DNA of 64,000 bases from Streptomyces sp. XM4193 (GTDB lineage: Bacteria > Actinomycetota > Actinomycetes > Streptomycetales > Streptomycetaceae), in contig NZ_JALLGK010000001.1 of NCBI RefSeq assembly GCF_023072595.1, forward strand, positions 1,178,001-1,242,000, read 5' to 3'. Positions 5,935 through 44,835 of this stretch are shown in pieces; the stretch's first letter is position 1, and the number at the start of each line of letters is the position of its first letter. A program made the translations under genes and the position numbers. The notes under the pieces were generated by a model that was not told where the DNA came from, did not search any database, and worked only from the letters and a program-made list of their open reading frames with translations.

Positions 5935-6384
5935 TCAGGAGACGCAGAACTCGTTGCCCTCGGGGTCGGTGAGCACGGACCACTGGCCGCCCTGGTCGTC
6001 GACGTCGTGGAGGTGGGTGGCGCCGAGCGCGGTGAGGCGGGCGACCTCCGTCGCGCGACTGCCGGCCTCGGCGTGCACGTCGATGTGGAGGCGGTTCTTG
6101 GTGGTCTTGGCCTCGGGGACCTGCTGGAAGAGGATGCGGCGGCCGAGCCCGATGCCGGTCTCGGCGGCGTACGGGTCGTCGGGGTGGCGTACGGCCACGA
6201 CGGTCCGCCAGGAGGGGCGGCCGTGGTGCTCGGTGAGGAGTGAGTCGTCGATGGCGCCGGCGCCGACCAGCCCGTTGATGAGGACGCTGTTGTCCTCGAC
6301 CAGGTAGCCGAGGGTCTGTGCCCAGAAGTCGGCGACGAGGTGCGGGTCGTGGGCGTCGACGACGAGCTTCCAGCTCAGGGCCAT
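5935..6384 (-). CDS. VOC family (glyoxalase-like) protein
   Basis: A 149-residue VOC protein: MALSWKLVVDAHDPHLVADFW at the N-terminus, TTKNRLHIDVH in the centre and TDPEGNEFCVS at the C-terminus. It is the same subfamily as the gene 80 bp downstream, so the pair is probably an old tandem duplication and may be co-transcribed. No signal peptide. Substrate unknown. Confidence 0.88.
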   Translation of the reverse strand: MALSWKLVVDAHDPHLVADFWAQTLGYLVEDNSVLINGLVGAGAIDDSLLTEHHGRPSWRTVVAVRHPDDPYAAETGIGLGRRILFQQVPEAKTTKNRLHIDVHAEAGSRATEVARLTALGATHLHDVDDQGGQWSVLTDPEGNEFCVS

Positions 6385-6941
6385 GGCGCGACTCCGGTGT
6401 GAGGTGAGGGGCGAGCGGGCTCGCGGGTGTGCTCGCAGGTGGGAAGCCTACGGCGGGGGTGTGACAGTCGGGTCGAAGCGCGCGGTGCGGTGTCGATCGG
6501 GTGGTGCGGCGTTGGCTGGGTGGTGCGGTGTTGGTCGGGTGGTTCGGCGGGTTGCCGGGTGGTGATGCGCGCTTGGTCGGGTGGTGTGGCGGTTGGGCCG
6601 GAGTGGCGGCGCGGGTGGTGATGCGGGGGCGTGCGGGCGGCGAAGTGCGCGGCGCTCAGGGCGAGTTCGGGGCGACCGGGGGAGGGCTGCCTGCGTTGAG
6701 CTGGGCTTTCGTGGCGAGTACCCAAAGGGAGTAAAAGGTGCGTACAACCATCGGCGGTCGATCCCTGTCGAACTGGTGGAAAACAGGGGGAAGGATCGGT
6801 GAACGGGGAGAGGTATCGCGTTCCGCAGTCATGAAATATCGCCAGAAGGCGGTGGATTGCGGTCGGTGGCGAACGACCCGGTCGGCTTCCTCGTCGAGAC
6901 CACACGCCCCGGACGGGGCACCAGGGAAGGACACGAACGCC
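6385..6941. other. Gene-less 557-bp gap with G/T-rich repeats
   Basis: Separates the divergent VOC gene and secreted-protein gene. From about 6490 to 6640 the + strand is almost free of A, with five exact GGGTGGTG cores (6499, 6518, 6557, 6579, 6613) and one GGGTGGTT (6537). From 6715 to 6850 the sequence becomes A-richer and probably carries the promoter of the 6942 gene. The frame of that gene is open back to 6738, but nothing upstream of the signal peptide looks like protein. Confidence 0.6.
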
Positions 6942-24107: not shown

Positions 24108-24779
24108 TCACGAGTTGAGATAGGTCAGTACGGCGAGGACTCTTCGGTGATCCGCGTCACTGTGGGCGAGACCGAGCTTCATGAAGATATTGCTCACATG
24201 CTTCTCGACCGCCGAGCCGCTGACCACCATGCGGGCGGCGATGGCCGAATTCGTACGGCCTTCCGCCATCAGCCCCAGAACCTCCCGCTCACGCGGTGTG
24301 AGCCGCTCCACCACATCCTGTTTGCGGCTGCGGCCGAGCAACTGTGTGACGACCTCCGGATCGAGCGCGGTACCCCCGTCCGCCACCCGACAGACCGCGT
24401 CCACGAACTCCCGCACATCGGCGACCCGATCCTTGAGGAGATAGCCGACGCCCTGGGTGGTGCCGGCCAGCAACTCGGTGGCGTACTGCTCCTCGACGTA
24501 CTGCGAGAGGACCAGGACGCCCACGCTCGGGTACCGGCCGCGCAGCTCTATCGCGGCCCGCACTCCCTCGTCGGTGTGGGTCGGCGGCATCCGGACATCG
24601 GCGACCACCACATCCGGCAGTCCGCCGCCTGCAGCGAGGTCGGCGACGGTCTTGACCAGCGCCTCGCCGTCCCCCACCCCGGCGACGACCTCGTGCCCCC
24701 GGTCGGTGAGCAGCCGGGTCAACCCCTCGCGCAGCAGTACCGAGTCCTCGGCGATGACGACCCGTACGTTGTCCGACAC
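24108..24779 (-). CDS. NarL/FixJ-family response regulator
   Basis: A 223-residue regulator. Receiver domain 1-125 with acidic pocket AEDS, phospho-acceptor Asp61 (VVVADVRMPP), Thr/Ser switch in VLVLSQY and Lys in LLKDRV; LuxR-type HTH at about 158-215 (LTPREREVLGLMAEGRTNSAIAARM, shortened landmark: TPREREVL...N-AIA). It is the last gene of the leftward set, 142 bp after the second histidine kinase. It is expected to take phosphate from one or both kinases; korAB lies next downstream and is a candidate target. Confidence 0.95.
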   Translation of the reverse strand: MSDNVRVVIAEDSVLLREGLTRLLTDRGHEVVAGVGDGEALVKTVADLAAGGGLPDVVVADVRMPPTHTDEGVRAAIELRGRYPSVGVLVLSQYVEEQYATELLAGTTQGVGYLLKDRVADVREFVDAVCRVADGGTALDPEVVTQLLGRSRKQDVVERLTPREREVLGLMAEGRTNSAIAARMVVSGSAVEKHVSNIFMKLGLAHSDADHRRVLAVLTYLNS

Positions 24780-24921: not shown

Positions 24922-26280
24922 TCAGCGGGCGGCCTTGGTGCCCTTCGCGCCGGAGGCGGTGGTGGCGTCTGCGCGGGTGTGGGTGGGTTGGGGGTCTCGC
25001 CAGGGGAGTTCGATGGTGATGGTGGTGGGTCCGCCGGGTGGGGAGTGGATGAGGAGGAGTCCGTCGACGGAGTTGAGGCGGTCGGCGAGGCCTTTGAGTC
25101 CGGTGCCGGTTTGGGTGGTGGCGCCGCCTTGGCCGTTGTCGGTGATTTGGATGAGGAGGCGGTTTTTGGTGCGCCAGAGTTCGACGTCGGCTTGGGTGGC
25201 GTGGCTGTGTTTGCTGATGTTTTGGAGGAGTTCGGAGACGGTGAAGTAGGCGATGGCTTCGATGGCGGGTGCGGGTCTGTGGGGTATTTCGGTGTGGAGG
25301 GTGGTGGGTACGGTGCAGCGGGCGCGGAGTGCGGAGAGTGCGGGTGCGAGTCCTCGGTCGGTGAGGATTGCGGGGTGGATTCCGCGGGCGAGGTCGCGGA
25401 GTTCTTGGAGGGCGAGTTTTACTTCGCCGTGTGCTTCGTCGACCATTTTTGCGGCGGATTCGGGGTCTTCGGAGAGTTTTTCCTTGGCGAGGCCGAGGTC
25501 CATGGCGAGAGCGACGAGTCTGGCCTGGGCGCCGTCGTGCAGATCCCGCTCGATACGCCGCAGATCCGCACTGGCCGTGTCCACCGCGGTGCCGCGCGCG
25601 CTCTCCAGCTTTCGCACCTCGCTGGCGAGCCTGGAAGGGCCGAGCAGGCCGACGACGAGCATCCGGTCCAGGGCGGCGAGGCCCCGCAGCATCCAGGGGC
25701 TGAGAAGGACGAACACCACTCCCGTCGCCGAGGCGAGCGTGATCTCGACCGGGGTGTCCAGCCAGATGCCGCTGCCGTCGGACTCGCCGTAGAGCTGGAG
25801 GCCGGGATCGTCGGTGTAGGTCGGGAAGACCCAGTGCCACAGCGGGTAGAGAGCGAGCGCCCAGCCGTAGAGCCACAGCGTCACACCGGTGATGAAGGAG
25901 AACAGCGCGAGCGGAAGGCTCAGCATCGCGTGGCAGGCGTGCCGCCAGGCGGCGCCGTTCTTCAGCGTCGCGCCGATCAGCGCCATGGCGCCGGTGCGCT
26001 CGCCCCGGGGTCGTATCGGCTCGGGCGCGGCCACTCGCACCCCGAGCAGCGCGCGGGTGCGGGAGCGCTGCACCGTGCCCAACCCGCGGCACAGCACAAG
26101 TGTCAGAGCCAGCAGCGGCACTCCGAGGAAGGTGATCAGCAGCGCTCCGCTCGCCGCCATCAGCGTCACGACCAGAACGAACGCCGGCAGGGCGATGAGC
26201 AGCCCGCTCACGATGTGGAGCAGAGCGCGCCAGGTCCATCCCGCGAACGGGGCGCGCAGCACTTCTTTGAGGACACGCAT
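24922..26280 (-). CDS. NarL-type sensor histidine kinase (copy 1 of tandem pair)
   Basis: A 452-residue membrane kinase. The N-terminal half has about four to five hydrophobic helices (a PspC/YccF-like sensor region, e.g. LLIALPAFVLVVTLMAASG). HisKA_3 domain: phospho-acceptor His248 in IERDLHDGAQ; HATPase domain with ELLQNISKHS (N-box), DNGQGG and GTGLKGLADRL. Its 3' 600 bp (24977-25583) is 99% identical to the kinase just upstream, whereas the sensor halves differ, and this block uses C- and A-ending codons unlike the rest of the gene. It begins 8 bp after the stop of the other kinase. Confidence 0.94.
   Translation of the reverse strand: MRVLKEVLRAPFAGWTWRALLHIVSGLLIALPAFVLVVTLMAASGALLITFLGVPLLALTLVLCRGLGTVQRSRTRALLGVRVAAPEPIRPRGERTGAMALIGATLKNGAAWRHACHAMLSLPLALFSFITGVTLWLYGWALALYPLWHWVFPTYTDDPGLQLYGESDGSGIWLDTPVEITLASATGVVFVLLSPWMLRGLAALDRMLVVGLLGPSRLASEVRKLESARGTAVDTASADLRRIERDLHDGAQARLVALAMDLGLAKEKLSEDPESAAKMVDEAHGEVKLALQELRDLARGIHPAILTDRGLAPALSALRARCTVPTTLHTEIPHRPAPAIEAIAYFTVSELLQNISKHSHATQADVELWRTKNRLLIQITDNGQGGATTQTGTGLKGLADRLNSVDGLLLIHSPPGGPTTITIELPWRDPQPTHTRADATTASGAKGTKAAR
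24977..25583 (-). repeat. 607-bp direct repeat inside kinase genes, copy 1
   Basis: Pairs with 26341-26947 at a fixed offset of 1364 bp. No mismatch from 24977 to 25457, then five mismatches to 25583, where similarity stops. The coding strand of the block is C/A-rich and G-poor, with wobble positions almost all C or A, unlike the flanking G/C-wobble sequence. Confidence 0.95.
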
Positions 26281-26288
26281 GGCAGTGG

Positions 26289-27521
26289 TCAGCGCTCCGA
26301 TCCGTTGTCCGTGTGGGTGTGGGTGGTTCGTGTGTTGGTGGTGTGGGTGGGTTGGGGGTCTCGCCAGGGGAGTTCGATGGTGATGGTGGTGGGTCCGCCG
26401 GGTGGGGAGTGGATGAGGAGGAGTCCGTCGACGGAGTTGAGGCGGTCGGCGAGGCCTTTGAGTCCGGTGCCGGTTTGGGTGGTGGCGCCGCCTTGGCCGT
26501 TGTCGGTGATTTGGATGAGGAGGCGGTTTTTGGTGCGCCAGAGTTCGACGTCGGCTTGGGTGGCGTGGCTGTGTTTGCTGATGTTTTGGAGGAGTTCGGA
26601 GACGGTGAAGTAGGCGATGGCTTCGATGGCGGGTGCGGGTCTGTGGGGTATTTCGGTGTGGAGGGTGGTGGGTACGGTGCAGCGGGCGCGGAGTGCGGAG
26701 AGTGCGGGTGCGAGTCCTCGGTCGGTGAGGATTGCGGGGTGGATTCCGCGGGCGAGGTCGCGGAGTTCTTGGAGGGCGAGTTTTACTTCGCCGTGTGCTT
26801 CGTCGACCATTTTTGCGGCGGCTTCGGGGTCTTCGGTGAGTTTTTCCTTGGCGAGGCCGAGGTCCATGGCGAGAGCGACGAGTCTGGCCTGGGCGCCGTC
26901 GTGCAGATCCCGCTCGATCCGCCGCAGATCCCCGCTGGCCGTGTCGGTGACCGTCTCCTTGTTGCTCCTGAGCTGAGCGATCCGCCGCTCCAGCCCGTCG
27001 GAGGGGGAGAGCAGGCCGCGCACCATCACCCGGTCGACCTGCGTCAACAGCCGCGCCAGCCACGGCAGAAGCGGCCAGAGCACGAACAGCGACACCAGCG
27101 TGATCGCGAAGGTCAGCACTCCCCAGGGAAGTCTGATCACCGCGAACAGCGCCGAGCGCCAGCCGACCGGGTCGGAGAGCGTCCGCCACAGCCACGGGAA
27201 GAAGCCCGGTTCTCCGGCTCGACCGAGCGGCGACGGCTCCTCGATCCGCAGGCCCAGCAGCACCCGCGCTCGACCGCGCTCCCAACGCCCCAGCGCGCGC
27301 ATGCCGGTGAGGCCCGCCGCGAGCACCGGCAGCCCGACCACGGTGACCGAGAGCAGCGCAGCCGCGAACACCCACACCACCGCACACACGAAGGCGAAGA
27401 TGCCGAGCGGGAGGTTGAGCAGCAGATGGACGATCTCCCGCCAGGTCGTGCCGCTCAGCGCCGCTCGTGGCGGAGGAAGCGACTCAGCACCGGCCGCTTC
27501 GGAAGTGGATCTCTCGGTCAT
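26289..27521 (-). CDS. NarL-type sensor histidine kinase (copy 2 of tandem pair)
   Basis: A 410-residue membrane kinase, first gene of the operon kinase-kinase-response regulator. Hydrophobic sensor region at residues 25-165, phospho-acceptor His207 in IERDLHDGAQ, N-box ELLQNISKHS, DNGQGG and GTGLKGLADRL. The C-terminal 200 residues are nearly identical to those of the downstream kinase (481 bp run without a mismatch), but the sensor region is only distantly similar, so the two probably sense different signals and feed the same regulator. The tail ends in a Thr/His-rich stretch (TTNTRTTHTHTDNGS). Confidence 0.94.
   Translation of the reverse strand: MTERSTSEAAGAESLPPPRAALSGTTWREIVHLLLNLPLGIFAFVCAVVWVFAAALLSVTVVGLPVLAAGLTGMRALGRWERGRARVLLGLRIEEPSPLGRAGEPGFFPWLWRTLSDPVGWRSALFAVIRLPWGVLTFAITLVSLFVLWPLLPWLARLLTQVDRVMVRGLLSPSDGLERRIAQLRSNKETVTDTASGDLRRIERDLHDGAQARLVALAMDLGLAKEKLTEDPEAAAKMVDEAHGEVKLALQELRDLARGIHPAILTDRGLAPALSALRARCTVPTTLHTEIPHRPAPAIEAIAYFTVSELLQNISKHSHATQADVELWRTKNRLLIQITDNGQGGATTQTGTGLKGLADRLNSVDGLLLIHSPPGGPTTITIELPWRDPQPTHTTNTRTTHTHTDNGSER
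26341..26947 (-). repeat. 607-bp direct repeat inside kinase genes, copy 2
   Basis: The second copy of the kinase catalytic block (see 24977-25583). It covers the dimerisation/phosphotransfer and ATPase domains and ends just before the unique C-terminal tails. Confidence 0.95.
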
Positions 27522-27782: not shown

Positions 27783-28550
27783 TCAACCGGTCTGCGGGCG
27801 ACCGGTGTTGGGGCCGAGCCAGGTGTAGCGGTGCTCGGGACGGCCCGCCGACCCGTATCGCATACGGAGCTCGGCGCGACCGTCGGCACAGAGGTGTTCG
27901 AGGTAGCGGCGGGCGGTGACGCGGGAGACGCCGGTCCGCTCGCTGACGTCGACGGCCGACAGATCGCCGTCGGCCTCGCGCAGGGTCCCGGCGATCAGCT
28001 CGCTGGTCGCCGCGGTCAGGCCCTTGGGCAGTGACTGCGTCGCGGTGGAGGGCCGCATCAGGCCGAACAGCCGGTCCACATCGCGCTGACTGGCCGCCTG
28101 GCCCGCTCCGGCCATCCGCTGCCGGGCGACGGCGAACCGTTCCAGCTGGTCGCGCAGCGCGGTGAGCGGGAAGGGTTTGAGCAGATAGTGGACGGCCCCG
28201 CCGTGCAGTGCGGCGCGCACCTGGTCGATGTCGCGCACGGCGGTGATGACGAGGAAGTCCACCGGATGGTGCCCGGCGTTCTCCGGCGAACGCTGTCTGC
28301 GCAGCACCGAGATGCCGGTGTCGTCCGGCAGGTAGAGGTCCAACAGGACCAGGTCGGGCCGGAGTCGGGCCATCTCGGTCAGCGCGTCCGCGGCGGTGTG
28401 GGCGACTCCGACCACCGTGAAGCCGGGCAGCGACTGGACCAGCTCGCGGTGGTTGCGGGCCACTCGTACGTCGTCGTCGACGACCAGCACCCTGATGCGC
28501 GGCGCGGGTGGTGGCACGGGCTGCGAGGGGGTGGCGGCGGAGGTGCTCAC
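27783..28550 (-). CDS. CitB/DcuR-family response regulator
   Basis: A 255-residue regulator. Receiver domain about 22-145 (VLVVDDDVRVARNH, phospho-acceptor Asp in LVLLDLYLPDDTG, LKPF Lys), then a winged or HTH C-terminal domain (SAVDVSERTGVSRVTARRYLEHL) as in CitB/DpiA. GTG start at 28550 overlaps the kinase stop (GTGA), so both are co-translated. The family controls citrate or C4-dicarboxylate uptake; the divergent tctCBA genes are the obvious targets. Confidence 0.93.
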   Translation of the reverse strand: MSTSAATPSQPVPPPAPRIRVLVVDDDVRVARNHRELVQSLPGFTVVGVAHTAADALTEMARLRPDLVLLDLYLPDDTGISVLRRQRSPENAGHHPVDFLVITAVRDIDQVRAALHGGAVHYLLKPFPLTALRDQLERFAVARQRMAGAGQAASQRDVDRLFGLMRPSTATQSLPKGLTAATSELIAGTLREADGDLSAVDVSERTGVSRVTARRYLEHLCADGRAELRMRYGSAGRPEHRYTWLGPNTGRPQTG

Positions 28551-30688
28551 GATCGTTCGACCGCCCCGTCGGAGCCGGAGCCGGAGCCGGACTCGGAGTC
28601 GGAGCTGGACTCGGAGCCGGGGGTGTGCGCGGTCCTGGTGCGCGAGGTGACGGCGCCCGGAGTGGCGGCACCCGAGGTCCCGGCGCCGGCAGGCTCGCCG
28701 GGCTGAACGCCGGAGCCGTCGGAGGGATCGGGGGCGGAGTTGTCGTACGGGCGCGGTGTGCGTGGGCCGCCGGCGCCGAGTACGGGGGCGTCGGGGCCCG
28801 CGCCGTCGTCGATGTCCGTTTCGTCCTCGAACGGGTGGTCGGAGACGGGTAGGTAGGCGGTGAACACGGCTCCCTCTTCGGACATGGCGTCGCCGGGAAC
28901 CTCCACCCCGACGCTGCCTCCGCGACTTTCGCAGACCTGCCGCACGAGCGCCAGCCCCAGGCCCTCGCCGAGGCCGCGGGTGTTTCTGCTGTCCGCGGCC
29001 TTGGTGGTGAACCCGTACTCGAAGATCTCCTCGGCGAGCCCGGCGCCGACCCCGTGCCCGGAGTCGATGACGCGGATCTCCACCAGATCGTGCGGGAGTT
29101 CGTCGCCGTCGGCGGGGTGGACCCGGATCAGCAGCTCGACCCAGCCCTCCTCGCCGGTGCGTCCGGTGACCGCGTCCAGGGCGTTGTCCAGCAGGTTTCC
29201 CAGTACCAGCAGCACATCGGCGCGGAGCCCGCCCGGGAGGGTGTAGGGCACTCTGCTCATCGGGGACAGCCGCAGCTCCGCGTTCTGCTCGTCGGCCTGG
29301 GCGCTCTTGGCGAGCGCGAGCGCGGCGACGGCCGAGTCCGCGATGTGACCGCTGATCTGGCCGCTCGCCCGGGCGTGCGCGGCGGACAGATCGGTGAGGT
29401 AGGCGCGGGCCTCCTCCACCTCGCCGAGCTCCAGCAGACCGGCCAGGGTGTGGATGCGGTTCGCGAACTCGTGGGACTGCGAACGCAGCCCGCGGGTGAC
29501 GGTACGGGCGCCGTCCAACTCCCCGGTCAGCCGGTCGAGTTCGGTGCGGTCGCGCAGTGTCACCACCGCACCCGCCGCGCGGCCGTGCACGCTGACCGGC
29601 ATCCGGTTGCAGACCAGCACCCGGGCGCCGATCAGCACGATCTGGTCCTCTCCCTCGGTCGCCCCGCCGATGATGTCGCGCAGCCGCGAGTCCAGTTCCA
29701 GCGCCTCCAGTGCGGTGCCCTCGCAGGCGTCCGGCAGCGACAGCAGCTGCCGTGCGGGCGGATTGACCAGCACGAGCCGGTCGTCGTTGTCCACGGCGAT
29801 CACGCCCTCGCGCACCGCGTGGAGCAGCGCCTCCCGGCTCTCCAGCAGCGCGGTGATGTCCGCCGGCTCCAGCCCGTACGTCTTCGCGCGGACCCGGCGG
29901 GAGAGCACGTACGCGCCCGCGGCGCCCAGCGTCAGCACGGCTGCGACGGTGCCCATGATCGACGGCAGCGCGTCCGTCGCCTCGGTGGCGATGTCGGAGG
30001 TCAGGACGCCGACGGAGACGTAGCCGAGGACGTCCTCGCCGCTCGGCCCGCCGAGGATCGGTACCTTCGCCCGCACGCTGGTGCCCTGGGTGCCGGTCTG
30101 CTGACCGCTCCACTCCTCTCCCGCGCCCGCCGGGCCGGGCGGGGTCGACACACGCTTGCCGATGAGCCGGTCGTCCACATGCGACATCCGGATGCCGTCC
30201 GGGGTGGCGACCACGACGTACTCGGCGCCGGTCGCGCGTCCCACCCGGTCCGCCAGCGGGTCGATCACGGCCGGCGGATCCGCCGAGGCCAGCGCCTCGC
30301 TGATCTCCGGCATCGCCGCCACCGAACGCCCGATGGTCAGCACCCGCTCGGTGTACTGCCGGTCCAACTGCCGGTCGTGGTGCGCCACCCACAGTGCGCC
30401 CGTCACCACCAGAGCGAGGACGAGCAGCGTCGCGTAGCCGACGAAGAGCGAACCGGTCAGCGAGAGCCGGTGCCGGCGCAGCCGACCGCAGACCCGGCGG
30501 AAGGCGCGCAGCGGACCGCCCCGGCGGCCCGGCCCACCCGCGGCCCCGGAGTCGCGCGTGTCGCGGTCGTCGGAGTCGCCGATGTCGCGGGGCACGGGCG
30601 GGGTGTGCGGGCCGGGCGACACGGGAGGCGCGGGAGGCACGGCCCCGTCGGGAACGGGGTGCGGACGGGCTGGGCGGCGGAGGCGCAT
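28547..30688 (-). CDS. CitA/DcuS-family sensor histidine kinase with long tails
   Basis: A 713-residue membrane kinase. After a Pro/Gly-rich cytoplasmic start come helix 1 (about 75-98), an extracytoplasmic PAS (CitA-type) domain about 100-250 with IGRSVAAMPEISEAL and GIRMSHVDDRLIGKRV, helix 2 (VLTLGAAGAYVL), a cytoplasmic PAS (VIAVDNDDRLVLVN), H-box SQSHEFANRIHTLAGLLELG, and HATPase motifs (LGNLLDNALDAV, GHGVG, GLGEGLGLAL). The CitA PAS binds tricarboxylates directly in known members. The last 90 residues are low-complexity and end in a Ser/Glu/Gly-rich repeat (SESSSDSESGSGSGSDG). Confidence 0.94.
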   Translation of the reverse strand: MRLRRPARPHPVPDGAVPPAPPVSPGPHTPPVPRDIGDSDDRDTRDSGAAGGPGRRGGPLRAFRRVCGRLRRHRLSLTGSLFVGYATLLVLALVVTGALWVAHHDRQLDRQYTERVLTIGRSVAAMPEISEALASADPPAVIDPLADRVGRATGAEYVVVATPDGIRMSHVDDRLIGKRVSTPPGPAGAGEEWSGQQTGTQGTSVRAKVPILGGPSGEDVLGYVSVGVLTSDIATEATDALPSIMGTVAAVLTLGAAGAYVLSRRVRAKTYGLEPADITALLESREALLHAVREGVIAVDNDDRLVLVNPPARQLLSLPDACEGTALEALELDSRLRDIIGGATEGEDQIVLIGARVLVCNRMPVSVHGRAAGAVVTLRDRTELDRLTGELDGARTVTRGLRSQSHEFANRIHTLAGLLELGEVEEARAYLTDLSAAHARASGQISGHIADSAVAALALAKSAQADEQNAELRLSPMSRVPYTLPGGLRADVLLVLGNLLDNALDAVTGRTGEEGWVELLIRVHPADGDELPHDLVEIRVIDSGHGVGAGLAEEIFEYGFTTKAADSRNTRGLGEGLGLALVRQVCESRGGSVGVEVPGDAMSEEGAVFTAYLPVSDHPFEDETDIDDGAGPDAPVLGAGGPRTPRPYDNSAPDPSDGSGVQPGEPAGAGTSGAATPGAVTSRTRTAHTPGSESSSDSESGSGSGSDGAVERS

Positions 30689-31137
30689 GGGGCGGCGGTT
30701 CCAGTGAAAGGCGGAGGTGGCACGGGGCGAACGGCGGTTCCCGCAGCCGGCGGAACACGACCAATACGACCACTACGACGCCAGTGTTAACAGATCTCGT
30801 ACATCGCCGTAACCCCGCTCCACACTGTGGGGCACCTCGCCGGGTCCCCACCCCGCGGGCCCGACGACCGTCCGTCCCCGGCGGTCCGCAGCCGTTCCGC
30901 ACCGTCCCGACCCCGGGGGCGGAGGAACCCGAGCCCCGCACCCGACGAGCACCCCGCACCCGCACGAGCACCCCGCACCTCGCACGAGCCGGCCGCAACA
31001 CCGCGCGAACAACGCACAGCGCCCCACGAGCAAGCCGCACACACCCCCCCCGCACCTGCACGGGCTCACCCCGGGCCCCGCACGTGCACCCGCAACCACC
31101 CCCGTACCGAGCTGCGGAGAATCACGGAGGAAGCCAG
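30689..31137. promoter_or_regulatory. Divergent control region between citA-like and tctC genes
   Basis: A 449-bp gap. Bases 30780-30830 are the least GC-rich part (GTTAACAGATCT, TCGTACATCGCCG) and are the best place for promoters or CitB-type binding. From 30900 to 31090 the + strand is a C/A-rich low-complexity run with the motif GAGCACCCCGCAC repeated. The region ends with the GGAGG ribosome site of tctC. No coding frame supported. Confidence 0.45.
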
Positions 31138-32139
31138 ATGAAGGTGGCACCGACCCGGGCGGCCCTGACGCGGATCGCCGCCTGCGGCGCGGCTGCGATC
31201 CTGGTGGGCGTCGCTGTGGTCGACGTACGGCAGAGCGCCGCGTCGGGCACGGGAGAGAACGAGAAGCTGCTGCTGATCGCGCCCGCGGCCCCCGGCGGCG
31301 GGTGGGACATGCTCGCCCGCGAGATGCAGAACGGTCTGCGCGAGGAGGGCCTGCGGCGCAACGTCGAGGTCTCCAACGCCGAGGGCGCGGGCGGCACCAT
31401 CGGGCTCACCCAGACCGCCAACCGCGAGGGCCAGTCCGGCGTTCTCACCATGACCGGACTCGGCATGGTCGGCGCCGTGGAGACACTCGGTTCGCAGCAC
31501 ACCATGGCGGACGCCACCCCGATCGCCCAACTGGCCTCCGAGTACCTGACGGTGGTCGTGCCGAAGAACTCGCCCTTCCGGACGGCGGACGAACTCGCCG
31601 ACGCCTGGCGGGAGAAGAAGCGCGGTCTGCCGGTCGCGGGCGGCTCGATGGGCGGCGTCGACCAGATCTTCGCCGCGCAGGTCGCGCAGAGCATGAAGGT
31701 GCCGCCGGGCGGCATCAACTACCTGCCGTACGCGGGTGGCGGCGAGGTGCTGACCTCGCTGCTCTCCGGCACCGCCCAGGTCGGATTCGGCACCTACGGC
31801 GACTTCAGCGACCAGTTGGAGTCCGGCGCGGTGCGCGCGCTGGGCATCTCCTCGCCGCAGCGGCTCAAGGGCGTCGACGAACTGCCCACTCTGCGCGAAC
31901 AGGGATACGACGTGGAGATGTCCAACTGGCGAGGGGTGATCGCTCCGCCCGGCATCGGCGAGGAGGAGGCGAAGAAGCTGGAGAGGGTGCTCGCCAAGCT
32001 CCGCAAGACCCCCACCTGGGCCGACACCCTCAAGCGGAACCGGTGGACCGACACGTACCAGGGGCGTGAGGAGTTCACGGCCTTCCTGAAGGAAGAGGTC
32101 GCGGTGGCGCGCAAGACCGTGAAGGCGCTGGGTCTGTGA
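31138..32139 (+). CDS. tctC: Tripartite tricarboxylate transporter substrate-binding protein
   Basis: A 333-residue extracytoplasmic binding protein of the TctC/Bug family. The ATG at 31138 is preceded by GGAGGAAG and starts a signal peptide or membrane anchor (RIAACGAAAILVGVAVVDV). Landmarks: LLIAPAAPGGGWDMLAREM, VVVPKNSPFRTADELADA, GINYLPYAGGGEVLTSLLSG, RALGISSPQRL and RGVIAPPGI. It captures citrate or another carboxylate and hands it to TctAB. The frame is open far upstream but that part is the C-rich control region. Its TGA overlaps the GTG of tctB. Confidence 0.94.
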   Translation: MKVAPTRAALTRIAACGAAAILVGVAVVDVRQSAASGTGENEKLLLIAPAAPGGGWDMLAREMQNGLREEGLRRNVEVSNAEGAGGTIGLTQTANREGQSGVLTMTGLGMVGAVETLGSQHTMADATPIAQLASEYLTVVVPKNSPFRTADELADAWREKKRGLPVAGGSMGGVDQIFAAQVAQSMKVPPGGINYLPYAGGGEVLTSLLSGTAQVGFGTYGDFSDQLESGAVRALGISSPQRLKGVDELPTLREQGYDVEMSNWRGVIAPPGIGEEEAKKLERVLAKLRKTPTWADTLKRNRWTDTYQGREEFTAFLKEEVAVARKTVKALGL

Positions 32140-32945
32140 CGGGCGCGGAGGAGGACCAGGACGTGACGAGAAACGGACCGGCCGCATCCCGGCCGTCAGC
32201 AGCGGAAGCCGGCACGACGGCTGGCGACCGGGCAGCGGAGGCCGGAAACGCGGCCGAGGCCGGGCACGCTGCGGAGGCCGGGAACGCTGCGGAGGAGACC
32301 ACGGCGGAAGCCGGGAACGCAGCAACCCCCGCGCCCGACGCGGAAGACGACGACCCTACGGCGGGCCGCGACGCGGAGACCGACGCGGAGACCGACGAGG
32401 GCCGCGACGCGGACCTCGCGCCGGCGCCCGCGTACGACCCGGAGACCGCTCCGTGGGTCGGCCCGCGCGCCTGGGTCTTCCCGGCGCTGGTCGCGACGTT
32501 CGGTGCGATCGCGGTGTGGGGCGCGTTCACCATCCAGGCCCCGCCCAACACCGAGCCGCCCGGCCCCGGAGTCGTGCCCGGCGTGGTCGGCACGCTGCTG
32601 CTGGTGGTCGCGGCCTGGATGGCCGCCACCAATCTGCGGTCGGCCCGTCAGCTCCGCGGAAGCGGTCGCGCCCAACTGCCCGGCCACGTGCCCCCGCCCC
32701 CGACCGACTGGCCGCCGGTGCTGCTGATCGTCGGCACGCTCGCCGTGCACGTCGCGCTGCTGGAGACGCTGGGCTGGCTGCTCGCCGGTGCACTGCTCTT
32801 CTGGGGCGTCGCGTACGCCTTCGGTGCCCGTTCGTACGCGCGTGACGCGCTCGTCGCCGTGTCGATGTCGGCGGCGGTGCAGGTCGGCTTCTCCTTCGGG
32901 CTGGGCCTGAGCCTGCCCGGCGGCGTACTGGAATGGATGGTGTGA
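32136..32945 (+). CDS. tctB: Tripartite tricarboxylate transporter small membrane subunit
   Basis: A 269-residue subunit; GTG start at 32136 overlaps the tctC stop. The C-terminal 150 residues hold four hydrophobic helices (WVFPALVATFGAIAVWGAF, VVGTLLLVVAAWMAATNL, LLIVGTLAVHVALLETLGWLL, the DALVAVSMSAAVQVGFSF region) as expected for TctB. The first about 110 residues are an unusual acidic/Ala-rich extension with a repeat of EAGNAAE/EAGHAAE units and DAETDAETDEG, absent from standard TctB (about 150 residues). Confidence 0.9.
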   Translation: MTGAEEDQDVTRNGPAASRPSAAEAGTTAGDRAAEAGNAAEAGHAAEAGNAAEETTAEAGNAATPAPDAEDDDPTAGRDAETDAETDEGRDADLAPAPAYDPETAPWVGPRAWVFPALVATFGAIAVWGAFTIQAPPNTEPPGPGVVPGVVGTLLLVVAAWMAATNLRSARQLRGSGRAQLPGHVPPPPTDWPPVLLIVGTLAVHVALLETLGWLLAGALLFWGVAYAFGARSYARDALVAVSMSAAVQVGFSFGLGLSLPGGVLEWMV

Positions 32946-32946
32946 C

Positions 32947-34530
32947 GTGGAAGCCTTCTCCCTTCTCGGCGACGGGCTCGTCTCCGCGCTGACCCCGGCG
33001 AACCTGCTGTGGGCGTTCTGCGGCGTGCTGTTGGGCACCGCCGTCGGCGTGCTGCCCGGCATGGGCTCCGCGATGGCCGTGGCGCTGCTGCTGCCGGTCA
33101 CCTTCCAGATGGACCCGACCGCGGCGTTCATCCTCTTCGCCGGCGTCTACTACGGCGGCATGTTCGGCGGTGCGACCACCTCCATCCTGCTCAACACCCC
33201 CGGCCAGGCGTCCTCGATCGCCACCACCTACGAGGGCCACAAGATGGCGCTGGCCGGACGGGCGCCGCAGGCACTGGGCACCGCCGTCATCGGCTCGTTC
33301 GTGGCGAGCATCATCGGCACTCTGGTGGTCGCGCTCTTCGCCCCGGCGATGGTCGACTTCGCGCTGAAGTTCGGGCCCGGCGAGTACTTCGCGCTGACCG
33401 TCTTCTCCTTCGTGGCCGTCGCCGCGGTGGTCTCCGGCTCGGTGGTGCGGGGCATCGCCTCGCTGCTGATCGGCCTGGCCATCGGACTGGTGGGCATCGA
33501 CAGCCAGAGCGGGGCACCGCGCTTCGACTTCGGCTCGGCCGTGCTGCTGGACGGCGTGGACCTGATCATCGTGACCGTCGGTCTGCTGGCGCTCGGCGAG
33601 GTGCTCTACGTCGCCGCACAGGGCCGGTACGCGCCCGACCTGGCCTCCATCCGGTCCGGAAAGCCGTGGCTCAAGCGCCGGGATCTGCGCCGCTCCTGGC
33701 CCGCGTGGCTGCGCGGCACCGCGCTCGGCACGACCTTCGGCCCGATCCCCGGCAGCGGTGCGGAGATCCCCACCTTCCTCTCGCTGGGCGCCGAGCGCAG
33801 ACTGGCCAAGCGGCGCGAGCGCCGCGGCGGCGAGAAGAGCGAGTTCGGCAAGGGCGCCATCGAAGGCGTCGCCGGGCCCGAGGCCGCCAACAACGGCTCC
33901 GCGGCCGGAACTCTCGTACCCCTGCTGGGACTTGGGCTCCCCACCTCGGCCACGGCCGCGATCATGCTGGCAGCCTTCCAGCAGTACGGGCTCCAGCCGG
34001 GTCCGGTGCTCTTCGAACGCAACGGCGATCTCGTCTGGACCCTGCTGGCCTCGCTGCTGATCGGCTCGGTGCTGCTGCTGGCCATCAACCTGCCGTTCGC
34101 CCCGCTGTGGGCCAAGCTGCTGAAGCTGCCCAAGCCGTACCTGTACGCGGGCATCACGCTCTTCTCGGTGCTGGCGGTCTACGCCATCAACGGCTCCACG
34201 GTGCATCTGGTGATGCTGCTCGCGGTGTCCCTGCTCGCCTTCGCGATGCGGCACTTCGGCGTACCGGTGGCGCCCGCGCTGATCGGTGTGGTGCTCGGCC
34301 CGATCGCCGAGACCGAGCTGCGCCGGGCGCTCGCCGCCTCGGCCGGCGACCCCTCGATCCTCGTCAACAGCGGTATCTCGATCGGCCTCTATGTGATGGT
34401 CGTCGTCGCCGCGCTGCTTCCGTTGGCGGCGAAGCTGCGCCGACTGCGCAGCAGCCGCACCGGAGCCGACCGGGACGGTCGGGACGGCGGCGGGGAGGAG
34501 CGCGAGCCGGCCGGTACGGCGTCGCGCTGA
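32947..34530 (+). CDS. tctA: Tripartite tricarboxylate transporter large membrane subunit
   Basis: A 527-residue integral membrane protein with about 11-12 helices. Family motifs: [25 protein letters not shown] near the N-terminus, [20 protein letters not shown] and, in the second half, [17 protein letters not shown] and [26 protein letters not shown] (PEAANNA-like motif plus G-LGLP). It forms the transport channel with TctB and takes substrate from TctC, driven by an ion gradient. GTG start 1 bp after the tctB stop. The operon ends at a strong hairpin. Confidence 0.96.
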
Positions 34531-41109: not shown

Positions 41110-42267
41110 ATGGTGACTGCCGCACAGCCGGGTCCCGCCGCGACCCGGGCACGTCCGGAGTCCGCTCCGCCCCCGTCGCCGGAGACCGCGCAGGGCCCGG
41201 GGCCCCACCCCGTCGAGGACCCGGTCGGCCCGTCCGCGCCGCTCGGGGTGCGCAACTGGCGTTGGGACGAGCCCGCTCGGGCCAGGACCGCCGGGGTGAC
41301 GGCCCTCGCGCTCGGACTGGTCGCCGCCTGGTACGCCCACCACTGGCTCGGTTCCGCCCGTGCGGGCACGGTCCTTCTGGTTGTCGCCTGCCTGGCGGGG
41401 GCGGCGGGCTCCGTGCTCGGCGGCCTCGCCGACGGTGCGCGTGCCGGCGACCGACACCGCCTGGGATACGTGCTGTTGGCGCTGGCCGGCCTCTGGGGCG
41501 TGTGCGGCGCATGGGTCGCGACGGGCACGCTCGCGGTGCGGCTGGCCGCGTTCGCCTCGGCCGTCGCGCTGACACTGGTGCTCGCCGGAGTGAGTACGCC
41601 GCTGGGCCGCAGCGCGCTCCTCGGCGCGGGCGCGGTGGCCGCCACCGCCGCGCTCTGGGAGACGGGACTGCTGCTGACCGACGCACGCGGCACCGGCGTC
41701 GTGCTCGGCGCCCTGTCGGTGTTCGTCCTCGGCTTCCTGCCGCGTCTCGCGCTCCAGGGCGCGGGGCTGCTGCGGCTGGACGACCAGCGTGCGCGCGGCA
41801 CTTCGGTCAGCGCGCACGAGGTCGACACCGCGCTCGCCGACAACCACCGGCAGTTGGCCCTGGTCACCATGACCGCCGCCGCCTCGACCGCCGCCGGCGG
41901 CTGGCTGGCGCTGGAACGACCGTCGCCGTGGAGTGTCGGACTGGTGGTGCTGCTCGCGGTGCTGCTGCTGGCGCGCGCCCGGGCGTATCCGCTGACGGTG
42001 GAGGTGCTGGCGTTGACGGCCGCGGCCGCCGTGCTGCTGGTGCGTCTGGTGGTGCTGTGGGGCTCCCACGCGACGGTCGGCCCTCTCGCGCTGTTCGCGG
42101 TGCTGCTGGGCGGAGTGCTGATGACGCTGGTGGTGCGCGTGCCGGAGCGCACGGGTGGGATGCTGCGGAGGGTGACCGACGTGGGGGAGTCGGTCAGTGT
42201 GGTGCTGCTTCTGCCGTTCGTGGTGGGAGCGTTCGGGGTGTTCGGTCAGCTGCTCACGGCGTTCTGA
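41110..42267 (+). CDS. EccD-like membrane protein, no ubiquitin-like domain
   Basis: A 385-residue membrane protein. After about 55 Pro/Ala-rich residues there are eleven predicted helices (e.g. TAGVTALALGLVAAWYA, VLLVVACLAGAAGSVLG, LALVTMTAAASTAAGGWLAL, VSVVLLLPFVVGAFGVFG), the count and spacing of EccD of type VII secretion, including the polar loop after helix 6 and before helix 7. It lacks EccD's N-terminal ubiquitin-like domain. The next gene encodes an EspI-like ATPase, the second type VII association. No eccB, eccC, eccE, mycP or esx genes are in the window. The EccD assignment rests on topology and context, so moderate. Confidence 0.6.
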   Translation: MVTAAQPGPAATRARPESAPPPSPETAQGPGPHPVEDPVGPSAPLGVRNWRWDEPARARTAGVTALALGLVAAWYAHHWLGSARAGTVLLVVACLAGAAGSVLGGLADGARAGDRHRLGYVLLALAGLWGVCGAWVATGTLAVRLAAFASAVALTLVLAGVSTPLGRSALLGAGAVAATAALWETGLLLTDARGTGVVLGALSVFVLGFLPRLALQGAGLLRLDDQRARGTSVSAHEVDTALADNHRQLALVTMTAAASTAAGGWLALERPSPWSVGLVVLLAVLLLARARAYPLTVEVLALTAAAAVLLVRLVVLWGSHATVGPLALFAVLLGGVLMTLVVRVPERTGGMLRRVTDVGESVSVVLLLPFVVGAFGVFGQLLTAF

Positions 42268-42270
42268 GCT

Positions 42271-44835
42271 GTGGAGATGTCGAGGGGGCATGCGGAGATG
42301 ACGGCACGGGACGAAGTCCGGGGCGCAGAGCGGGACTCGGCGTCCGCGGGCGGAGGCGTTCCGCCCGCGGAGCAGGGGGCGGGCCCTCGCGAGGGAGCGC
42401 CGGAGCCGGCCGGTTCGGCCGACGGCGGCGGTGTGCAGGAGGACGTGGCGCGCACCTTCGGCGGGGCGCTGCCGCTCCCGGACGACCGCGACGCGGCGGC
42501 GGCGGACGTGAACGCGGTGCAGCTGCCGGAGGCGGGAACGCTGCCGGACGCGGAGGGCCTGCCGGACGCGGGAACGCTGCCGGACGAGGACCCTGTCCTG
42601 CTCGCGGGCTTCGGTCCGGTGCCGTTGCCCGCGCCCGTACCGGGACCGAGGCTGAGGGCCGCCGCCGAGTCCGAGGCCGACGCGCGCGCCCGGGCCGTGG
42701 CCGACCCGGGCGCGGAGCCCGTGGCCGACGGCGGAGGCGCCGCGGAGATCGAGCCGGAGGACGCCGTACCGCCGGGGTTCGAGGCCCAACAGCTCCCGGG
42801 CGAAGCCGAGTCGAAGCCGACGGCCGGGGCGGCAGCCCGCCCGGCGGACGAAGCAGCCGCGGCGAGCGTGCCGCCGCCGCAGGGCGGGGCGCCGGTGGAG
42901 GGCGGGGCGCCGGTGGAGGGGCCCGACCGGGGGCCCGCACCCCCGACGGCAGAGCCGGCCGCCGAAGAACGGACCCAGGTCGGGATCGAGGTGCCGTTCG
43001 CGGAGGACGAGGACGCCGCCGTCACCCAACACATCGAGGCCCTCGCGCCGCCGCCCATGCCGGCCGTTCCGCCCCCGCTGCCGCAGTCGGCGCCGCCCTC
43101 CGGGGAGTCGGCAGTCGCCTCCGTCGCCGCTCCGACCGGTACCGGCCCGACGATCGACCAACTCCCGCCTCCCGACGCGGTGTTCGACGTGAGCAGCCCA
43201 CCGCCCGCGTTTCCCGAACCGGCAGCGGCCGAGCAGACGCTGCTGCTGTCACCCGTCCCCGCGGACCTCGCCGCCGAGCCGACGGCCGCCGCCGAGCCGA
43301 CGGCCGCCGCCGAGCCGACGGCCGCCACCGAGACGTACGCCGCCACCGAGACGTACGCCGCCACCGAGCCGACCGTCTCCGGTGTCCCGTACGCCGCACC
43401 GACCGCCGCACCGACCGTCGCCGCCGAGTCGTACGCCGCACCCCCCGCCCCGCTGCCGCCGCACGCGGTGGCCGCGCCGCCGACTGTCCAACAGCCGCCC
43501 GTCGCCGCGCGGCCCGCCGCCCAATCCGCCGTGCAGCCCGGACCGCAGGCCGCGACGTCACCCGCACCGCACGTCGGGTCGGCGGCGGGGCGCACCGAGG
43601 TCGAGCCACCGCGGAACGCTCCGTCGCAGCCGCCGCGGGCACCGGCGGCGCCGCAGGCACCGGCAGTCCCGCAGGCGCCGGCGGCGCACGCACCCGCGCA
43701 CACCGCACCGGCCGCCCACCCCGTCAACCCGCCGCAGTCCGGACCCTCCGCGCCGGTCGGGCCGCAGCCGTACGCCCAGCCGACCCAGCAGGCCCCGCCC
43801 GCCCGGCCGGCTCACTCCACCCAGGCGGCCCCGCCCGCCCGGCACATGCCGAACGCGCCGTACGCCCCGTCGGCCCCGCACCTGCCGTACGGCTCGGCGC
43901 CCGGGGCTCTGGCGCCGGTCTCCGTCCCCGTCAACGGGCCGGAGGTGGCCGAGGTCAAAAGACGGGCGCGGCACGGCGACAGCATGTCCCGACGCACCGT
44001 CCAGGCGCTGCACCGGCTCGTCTCCTCCACCGCGCGCGAGACCACGATCGCCACCGAGACCGCCCGCGCGATACAGCAACCGGTGCACAGCGGACGCCAG
44101 TTGGCGGTCACCAGCATCCGCGGGGGCGCGGGCAAGTCGACAATCGCCGCGCTGCTGTCCCTCACCTACGCGCACTACCGCAACGATCCGACGCTCACCG
44201 TGGAGGCCGATCCTGCCCTCGGGACCATTCCGGGCCGGCTCGGGGCCTCAGAGATCCGCTGGACCTGCGCGGATCTGGCGCGGATCGTCAACCCCTCGAT
44301 GCGGCTGACCGACATCACCGGCTATCTGGTGCGGCTGCCCGGCGGCGGCTGGCTGCTGCCCGCGAGTCAGGGCGCGGTCGGCGCCCAACTCGACCTGGAC
44401 ACCTACCGTGTCGTGATCACCTCGCTCGGCCGCTACTTCGGCACCTCGGTGGTGGACTGCGAGACGCTGCCCGCCGAAGTGGCACGCACCGCGCTGACCA
44501 CCACCCAGGCGCGGGTGCTCGTCACCCCGGCGACGGTGGAGGGGGTTGCGGCGACGCGTTCGGTGCTGGACTGGATGGGCAAGCTCCATCCGCGGATGCT
44601 CGCCACCACCGTGGTCGCCGTTTCGCACGCGGTACCCGACACCGCGCTCGACGAGGCGAAGGCGATCCGGCATCTCGCGGTCGGCGGCGCGACGGTCGTC
44701 CCCATCCCCTACGACCGGCACCTCGCCGCGGGCGGCGCGATCCGCACGGAGCTGCTGGGCCACCACACCCGTGCCGCGGCCGCCCGTCTCGCCGCGGAGT
44801 GCATGGGGCGTGCGGTCGCGTTCGACCGGCGGTAG
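42271..44835 (+). CDS. EspI-like MinD/ParA-family ATPase with long Pro/Ala-rich N-terminus
   Basis: A protein of up to 854 residues (GTG 42271; ATG 42298 is also possible). Residues 1-560 are a disordered Pro/Ala/Glu-rich region with short repeats (EPTAAA, TETYAA, PVEGGA). The C-terminal 290 residues are a MinD/ParA-type domain: deviant Walker A IRGGAGKSTIAALL, VEADPALGTIPGRLG, PASQGAV and VVDCETLPAEVAR. Proline-rich N-terminus plus this ATPase domain is the plan of EspI of mycobacterial ESX-1 and its relatives, which tune secretion. It follows the EccD-like gene by 3 bp, so they are co-expressed. Confidence 0.72.
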   Translation: MEMSRGHAEMTARDEVRGAERDSASAGGGVPPAEQGAGPREGAPEPAGSADGGGVQEDVARTFGGALPLPDDRDAAAADVNAVQLPEAGTLPDAEGLPDAGTLPDEDPVLLAGFGPVPLPAPVPGPRLRAAAESEADARARAVADPGAEPVADGGGAAEIEPEDAVPPGFEAQQLPGEAESKPTAGAAARPADEAAAASVPPPQGGAPVEGGAPVEGPDRGPAPPTAEPAAEERTQVGIEVPFAEDEDAAVTQHIEALAPPPMPAVPPPLPQSAPPSGESAVASVAAPTGTGPTIDQLPPPDAVFDVSSPPPAFPEPAAAEQTLLLSPVPADLAAEPTAAAEPTAAAEPTAATETYAATETYAATEPTVSGVPYAAPTAAPTVAAESYAAPPAPLPPHAVAAPPTVQQPPVAARPAAQSAVQPGPQAATSPAPHVGSAAGRTEVEPPRNAPSQPPRAPAAPQAPAVPQAPAAHAPAHTAPAAHPVNPPQSGPSAPVGPQPYAQPTQQAPPARPAHSTQAAPPARHMPNAPYAPSAPHLPYGSAPGALAPVSVPVNGPEVAEVKRRARHGDSMSRRTVQALHRLVSSTARETTIATETARAIQQPVHSGRQLAVTSIRGGAGKSTIAALLSLTYAHYRNDPTLTVEADPALGTIPGRLGASEIRWTCADLARIVNPSMRLTDITGYLVRLPGGGWLLPASQGAVGAQLDLDTYRVVITSLGRYFGTSVVDCETLPAEVARTALTTTQARVLVTPATVEGVAATRSVLDWMGKLHPRMLATTVVAVSHAVPDTALDEAKAIRHLAVGGATVVPIPYDRHLAAGGAIRTELLGHHTRAAAARLAAECMGRAVAFDRR
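43258..43374 (+). repeat. 15-bp codon repeats in the EspI-like gene
   Basis: Unit GCCGCCGAGCCGACG and its variants (GCCACCGAGACGTAC) repeat head to tail, coding for EPTAA/ETYAA units in the disordered N-terminal region. In-frame expansion without loss of reading frame. Confidence 0.75.

What the first reader, a model, noticed from the sequence alone, without database searches (positions are those of the whole stretch)
24977..26947. Tandem kinases share a 607-bp catalytic block that is 99% identical, while their sensors differ
481 bp match without one difference and the whole block differs at five positions, yet the membrane sensor halves are clearly diverged. A recent simple duplication would have kept the sensors alike, so gene conversion must be keeping the catalytic halves the same. 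This would keep both kinases matched to the single response regulator while inputs vary.
Basis: seen in the sequence. Interest (0 to 1): 0.65.

Follow-up and report, generated by a model that had tools for sequence, protein, structure and literature searches.

The report
Replication-polarised gene conversion in tandem kinases
Two neighbouring sensor-kinase genes in a Streptomyces share an almost identical half because gene conversion keeps copying one onto the other, and this and similar copied regions carry a base bias whose direction follows chromosome replication, which suggests that the unusual mismatch-repair enzyme NucS filters the copying.

Summary
The repeat is real: 606 bp, five differences, at 24976-25581 and 26340-26945. 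It covers the HisKA_3/HATPase halves of two tandem kinases beside one response regulator, the architecture of AbrC1/C2/C3.

Across 90 species the sensors stay 51-66% alike while the catalytic halves range from 69 to 100%. Skew rises with copy identity (Spearman 0.87), with at least five changes of strong-skew state on the tree. Gene conversion is supported. 'Conversion keeps the kinases matched' is not: 56 of 90 pairs are under 87.1% identical.

Following the skew into complete Streptomyces genomes gave an unexpected rule: in 86 of 86 repeated skewed segments the G/T-rich strand is the leading strand, whichever strand is coding. Streptomyces NucS cuts exactly G/T, G/G and T/T mismatches. Conversion annealed on the lagging-strand template and filtered by NucS would give this polarity. 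The rule is shown; the NucS mechanism is inferred. Prior publication of the rule could not be checked: the original GRINS paper was not readable here.

The parts
26289..27521 (-). Kinase 1 (AbrC1-like): PF13796 sensor, HisKA_3, HATPase_c; phospho-acceptor His207 by motif
   Evidence: Pfam; coordinates; His position
24922..26280 (-). Kinase 2 (AbrC2-like): PF13796 sensor, HisKA_3, HATPase_c; phospho-acceptor His248 by motif
   Evidence: Pfam
24108..24779 (-). Response regulator (AbrC3-like): Response_reg plus LuxR/GerE domain
24976..25581 (-). Repeat copy in kinase 2: 606 bp, 99.2% identical to the other copy; five differences at 25458, 25473, 25555, 25568, 25570
26340..26945 (-). Repeat copy in kinase 1: 606 bp
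25177..25443 (-). 89 consecutive codons with A or C at the third position (kinase 2)
25003..25173 (-). 57 consecutive codons with A or C at the third position (kinase 2)
26541..26807 (-). 89 consecutive codons with A or C at the third position (kinase 1)
26367..26537 (-). 57 consecutive codons with A or C at the third position (kinase 1)
25582..26280 (-). Diverged part of kinase 2 (sensor half); no repeat, no negative skew, 51.3% identical to its paralogue
26946..27521 (-). Diverged part of kinase 1 (sensor half)

Best explanation
The catalytic halves of an AbrC-type tandem kinase pair are a two-copy, GRINS-type element: recurrent gene conversion keeps them alike and at the same time pushes one DNA strand to A/C (amino bases) and the other to G/T (keto bases). 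SHOWN: conversion; its repeated independent appearance at this locus in Streptomyces; skew growing with copy identity and not seen here without homogenisation; in Streptomyces GRINS generally, the keto strand is the replication leading strand whichever strand is coding. INFERRED: conversion occurs at the fork, with single-stranded DNA of lagging-strand sequence from one copy annealing to the exposed lagging-strand template of the other. NucS, the actinobacterial mismatch endonuclease, cuts only keto-keto mismatches (G/T, G/G, T/T). A donor base G/T over a recipient A/C makes such a mismatch and is rejected; a donor A/C over a recipient G/T makes an amino-amino mismatch that NucS ignores, and is fixed. 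Each round therefore collects the A/C alleles of both copies on the lagging strand until no silent G/T remains. abrC is transcribed head-on to replication, so its coding strand is the lagging, A/C-rich one.
For: Copy identity and skew covary over 90 species, Spearman 0.87 for GC and 0.77 for TA skew; at least 5 changes of strong-skew state on a sensor/RR tree and 13 of moderate skew; independent pairs about 7 concordant to 0 discordant, p about 0.016. No strongly skewed pair is under 93% identical, but six pairs are 88-93% identical without skew, so conversion seems to come first. Fourfold sites: C .48 to .84, A .02 to .11, G .48 to .04, T .03 to .001. Sites that were G become C (401) far more often than A (40). 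As pairs homogenise, shared C rises .26 to .85 while shared G falls .33 to .03. Polarity: 86/86 repeated skewed segments, 27/27 stretches in 11 complete genomes plus G000, have keto = leading; 56/56 co-directional genes are keto-coding, 0/30 head-on genes are; unskewed background is about 0. abrC is head-on in 16 of 16 complete genomes with a clear origin. nucS is present in this genome. Streptomyces NucS cuts G/T, T/T, G/G and not T/C, A/A, A/C, G/A, C/C (PMC11109965). In M. smegmatis, oligonucleotides on the lagging-strand template are rejected for G-T and G-G but accepted for C-C, A-A, A-C, and repair is confined to about 5-6 bp (PMC11551744). NucS restrains recombination between 85-95% identical sequences (PMC5290159).
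Against: No conversion or NucS experiment exists for this locus. GRINS are reported, less often, in cyanobacteria, firmicutes and some eukaryotes (PMC10394414), where NucS is not the known mismatch-repair enzyme, so NucS may not be necessary. Some single-copy genes (pyruvate kinase, SIMPL, PLP decarboxylase neighbourhoods) are equally A/C-coded and oppose the replication rule. Between the window and S. tardus the block also changes more slowly than its surroundings (99.2% against 93.6%), which the model allows but does not require. With a laxer skew cut-off (0.15) three of 87 repeated segments disagree. The 86 segments are not independent (27 stretches; some genomes closely related).
Confidence: 0.55

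Rival explanations
1. Strand-asymmetric replication errors, not conversion, recode the region; conversion only spreads them.
For: In Streptomyces lacking NucS, leading-strand A>G and C>T exceed their complements, which also pushes the leading strand towards keto (PMC11109965). The polarity found here follows replication.
Against: That spectrum is transitions, whereas G to C (401) outnumbers G to A (40) at fourfold sites. Neighbouring DNA in the same stretches has leading-strand skew near zero. The sensor halves of the same genes are unaffected.
Confidence: 0.12
2. The skewed sequence itself promotes conversion (skew first), as proposed for polyketide synthase GRINS; the cause of the skew is something else.
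For: PMC9899208 states that biased composition and low complexity make GRINS prone to conversion. Skew and identity are tightly linked.
Against: Six pairs are 88-93% identical with skew near zero and none is strongly skewed below 93% identity. It does not explain the replication polarity.
Confidence: 0.15
3. Selection on codon usage, mRNA structure or translation of the kinase catalytic domain, with paralogue identity a by-product.
For: The change is largely synonymous.
Against: 62 of 90 species lack the skew at the same domain. Other repeats in Streptomyces have the opposite coding-strand bias when transcribed with the fork (56/56; this genome's C13 synthase). Residues drift to Thr and His.
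Confidence: 0.04
4. Adaptive homogenisation: conversion is maintained because both kinases must fit the single response regulator.
For: Two kinases and one regulator form the S. coelicolor AbrC system and both kinases autophosphorylate (PMC4428217).
Against: Catalytic halves diverge to 69-87% identity in 56 of 90 species with the same architecture. S. coelicolor kinases share only 57% of residues and both act there.
Confidence: 0.07
5. Recent segmental duplication, assembly collapse or horizontal import of one block.
For: Near-identity, and contig breaks at this repeat in G373.
Against: Intact tandem pairs with 100% identical blocks in independent assemblies including a single-contig chromosome. 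Diverged flanks within each pair. No further full-length copy in the genome.
Confidence: 0.03

Closest known systems
[quoted passage not shown] Nivina et al. 2021, as described in PMC10394414 and PMC9899208)
   Same: At least 500 bp, more than 90% identity to another region of the same cluster, GC and TA skew over 0.25, conversion implied
   Different: Lies in a conserved two-gene histidine-kinase pair rather than an assembly line; only two copies; an orthologous locus in hundreds of species allows replicated tests; polarity shown here to follow replication
AbrC1/AbrC2/AbrC3 two-component system (SCO4598/4597/4596), PMC4428217 and PMC3098853
   Same: Two tandem Sensor-HisKA_3-HATPase kinases beside one NarL-type regulator; conserved in Streptomyces
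   Different: In this genome the catalytic halves are homogenised and recoded; the S. coelicolor kinases share 57% of residues. Direct comparison with the S. coelicolor sequences was not run
NucS/EndoMS non-canonical mismatch repair (PMC11109965, PMC11551744, PMC5290159)
   Same: Its keto-keto mismatch specificity and lagging-strand editing outcomes give the bias seen here
   Different: None of the passages read from these papers concerns GRINS; PMC11109965 does not mention gene conversion or GRINS
Concerted evolution or GC-biased gene conversion
   Same: Homogenised paralogues with diverged flanks
   Different: G+C falls in the block (about 0.74 to 0.64-0.71) and the bias is amino/keto on one strand, not G+C

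Membership tests
GRINS | Region of at least 500 bp with over 80-90% DNA identity to another region of the same gene cluster | tested here: met
   606 bp, 99.2%
[quoted passage not shown]
   -0.45 and -0.42 on the coding strand; flanks not
GRINS | Evidence of gene conversion between copies | tested here: met
   Paralogues closer than orthologues in the block only
GRINS | Located in an assembly-line polyketide synthase (the setting in which GRINS were defined) | tested here: not met
   Host genes are histidine kinases; hence called GRINS-type, a variant in another gene family
AbrC two-component system | Two tandem histidine kinases plus one response regulator, conserved in Streptomyces | tested here: met
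AbrC two-component system | Sequence orthology to SCO4596-SCO4598 | not tested
   S. coelicolor sequences were not fetched; assignment rests on architecture and genus-wide conservation
NucS-filtered conversion | nucS present in the genome | tested here: met
   PF01939 hit, 138 bits, G000:C14:185288-185650
NucS-filtered conversion | Bias lost without NucS | not testable with these tools
   Needs a nucS deletion or NucS-lacking genomes rich in repeats

The most novel reading that the evidence does not exclude
GRINS are the footprint of a replication-coupled, NucS-filtered gene-conversion ratchet: any tandem repeat in a NucS-bearing genome that converts through the lagging-strand template loses G/T from its lagging strand, site by site. 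This would explain what makes GRINS, why they are commonest in actinobacteria, and why their sign follows replication.
Probability: 0.45. Interest if true: 0.9.

Novelty: new variant of a known kind. Interest (0 to 1): 0.78.

Why it matters
The cause of GRINS, which reshape antibiotic-making synthases, has been described as unknown (recollection of the 2021 abstract; the paper was not readable here). A two-copy locus present in nearly every Streptomyces species, in all states from diverged to fully recoded, turns that into a replicated natural experiment. The replication-polarity rule rules out codon-usage explanations and points to a specific enzyme whose known mismatch specificity predicts the bias and its sign. 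If right, a DNA-repair enzyme's blind spot directs protein evolution in tandem repeats, with use in designing or stabilising repetitive biosynthetic genes.

Tried and rejected
The original GRINS paper is not in the library. Direct GC-biased conversion was rejected because G+C falls in the block. Keto-free tracts made of Lys/Ala/Pro low-complexity protein were found by the pattern and kept out of the polarity test, which used skew plus duplication instead. The idea that the single-copy exceptions have a hidden near-identical paralogue was checked for pyruvate kinase and not supported (second copy 73-74%). No literature on replication polarity of GRINS or on NucS and GRINS was found in the held library; that is not proof of absence.

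Full report
OBSERVATION. The direct repeat is as described: 24976-25581 and 26340-26945, 606 bp, five mismatches, 482 bp without a difference. It lies on the minus strand in two tandem kinases, each a PF13796 sensor followed by HisKA_3 and HATPase_c, beside a LuxR-type response regulator. No other full copy exists in this 6.05-Mb genome. The architecture, order and genus-wide conservation match the AbrC1/AbrC2/AbrC3 system, two kinases and one regulator controlling antibiotic production in S. coelicolor (PMC4428217, PMC3098853). Direct sequence comparison with S. coelicolor was not made.

Both copies coincide with intense strand skew that stops near the repeat edges. In kinase 1 the catalytic block has 98 fourfold sites (84% C, 16% A, no G, no T), 21 twofold purine sites (all A) and 22 twofold pyrimidine sites (all C): 141 of 141 silent third positions are amino bases, while the sensor halves keep 57% G/T at fourfold sites. 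High local identity plus intense GC and TA skew is the definition of GRINS as given in PMC10394414 and PMC9899208, here outside a polyketide synthase.

COMPARATIVE TEST. Nearly all species of the genus that were sampled (391 of 393) have a match, usually two. From 90 de-duplicated loci with both kinases: sensor identity within a genome is 51-66% throughout, catalytic identity 69-100%. Skew and identity rise together (Spearman 0.87, p 6e-29 for GC skew; 0.77 for TA skew). On a tree of sensors plus regulator, strong skew needs at least five changes of state and moderate skew thirteen; independent pairs are concordant about 7 to 0. The tree is a quick one and its deep branches are partly unresolved. 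In 24 of 90 species the two blocks are closer to each other than to any orthologue in the set, never so for the sensors. The set is not random: some loci were chosen because they resemble the window's block.

CONVERSION, AND ITS ORDER. Codon determinism cannot explain within-genome identity: skewed blocks of different species share a median 83% of codons at same-residue sites, against 88-100% within a genome and 100% in most skewed pairs. Strong skew occurs only above 93% identity, whereas six pairs are 88-93% identical with skew near zero. Homogenisation therefore appears to precede skew. As identity rises, sites shared as C climb from .26 to .85 and sites shared as G fall from .33 to .03. 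Sites with consensus G in unskewed species became C 401 times, A 40 times and stayed G 33 times.

POLARITY FOLLOWS REPLICATION. In this genome other keto-free tracts occur in NRPS and Rhs-type repeats and in a synthase on contig C13 whose coding strand has the opposite, G/T-rich bias. Tracts were then located in complete Streptomyces genomes and dnaA was mapped. From 39 analysed stretches (15 complete genomes plus G000), strand-blind skew detection plus duplication gave 86 repeated skewed segments in 27 stretches from 11 complete genomes plus G000. In all 86 the keto strand is the leading strand; 56 of 56 genes co-directional with the fork are keto-coding and 0 of 30 head-on genes are. The rule holds at skew cut-offs 0.2, 0.25 and 0.3; at 0.15 it is 84 of 87. 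The rest of the same stretches has leading-strand skew near zero. The segments are not independent, so the Fisher p of 8e-24 overstates the evidence; 27 of 27 stretches is the fairer figure. abrC is head-on in 16 of 16 complete genomes with a clear origin, as its A/C-rich coding strand requires. In this genome dnaA and abrC lie on one contig, dnaA at 227 kb and abrC at 1203 kb on the minus strand, which also fits.

MECHANISM (inferred). Streptomyces NucS cuts G/T, T/T and G/G and shows no activity on T/C, A/A, A/C, G/A or C/C, and it is stimulated by the replication clamp (PMC11109965). In M. smegmatis, oligonucleotides annealed to the lagging-strand template are rejected when they make G-T or G-G mismatches but accepted for C-C, A-A, A-C and others, and repair patches are only about 5-6 bp, so neighbouring mismatches are judged separately (PMC11551744). 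If strands of lagging-strand sequence pass between repeats at the fork, amino alleles pass and keto alleles are removed, one site at a time. Both copies then collect every A/C allele on the lagging strand. This predicts the two bases enriched, the strand, the transversions and the dependence on repeats. This genome has nucS. The opposite choice of annealed strand would predict the opposite polarity, which is not seen.

LIMITS. NucS has not been tested at this locus. GRINS outside actinobacteria argue that NucS may not be the only route. A recurrent set of single-copy A/C-coded genes around pyruvate kinase and SIMPL breaks the rule and has no near-identical second copy. The original GRINS paper was not available, so novelty of the polarity rule is unverified. 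The adaptive 'matching' idea is not needed and is weakened by free divergence of the catalytic halves in most species.

VERDICT. Observation confirmed; conversion supported; purpose not supported. The locus is a new variant of a known kind (a GRINS-type element in a kinase pair), and the polarity rule with a specific enzymatic hypothesis makes an open question about GRINS directly testable.

Noticed in passing
L291 (G013 2.38 Mb), L294 (G209 2.51 Mb), L296 (G074 6.14 Mb), G012 4.36 Mb: Single-copy pyruvate kinase and SIMPL-domain genes with mostly A/C third positions on the coding strand, recurrent in several Streptomyces and against the replication-polarity rule where tested; no near-identical second copy (73-74%).
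   Followed up: partly
L293 (G105 0.67 Mb), L295 (G248 5.60 Mb): Another single-copy A/C-coded neighbourhood: a PLP-dependent decarboxylase gene in both, next to an aminopeptidase-like (ERAP1_C) gene in L295; 92-96% A/C third positions in the decarboxylase.
   Followed up: partly
G377:C1:9375226 and 9397795; G074:C1:7869920 and 7919630: Inverted copies of keto-free tracts within one replichore: one copy follows the replication rule and the other necessarily does not; a natural test of how fast polarity adjusts.
   Followed up: no
G084:C1:260618 and 11864010: Keto-free tracts at mirrored positions near both chromosome ends, probably in terminal inverted repeats, so both copies keep the same orientation to replication.
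   Followed up: no
window 26289-26340: Kinase 1 ends in a Thr/His-rich tail (THTTNTRTTHTHTDNGSER), as if the A/C bias had also shaped unconstrained protein sequence.
   Followed up: no
window 24976-25581 and 26340-26945 against L117: The skewed block is more conserved between this genome and S. tardus (99%) than its surroundings (about 94%); the same holds for several other skewed species pairs but not clearly for unskewed pairs.
   Followed up: partly
G373:C64:32 and C22:1: An assembly breaks at this repeat, so draft genomes probably under-report homogenised pairs.
   Followed up: no
window 27783-34530: A cache-domain sensor kinase and its regulator next to genes resembling a tripartite tricarboxylate transporter (substrate-binding protein, small and large membrane proteins).
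   Followed up: no
window 6271-6780, 41941-42390, 30751-31140: Other short stretches with same-sign GC and TA skew; no repeat of 40 bp or more was seen for 30751-31140, and the other two were not checked for repeats.
   Followed up: no
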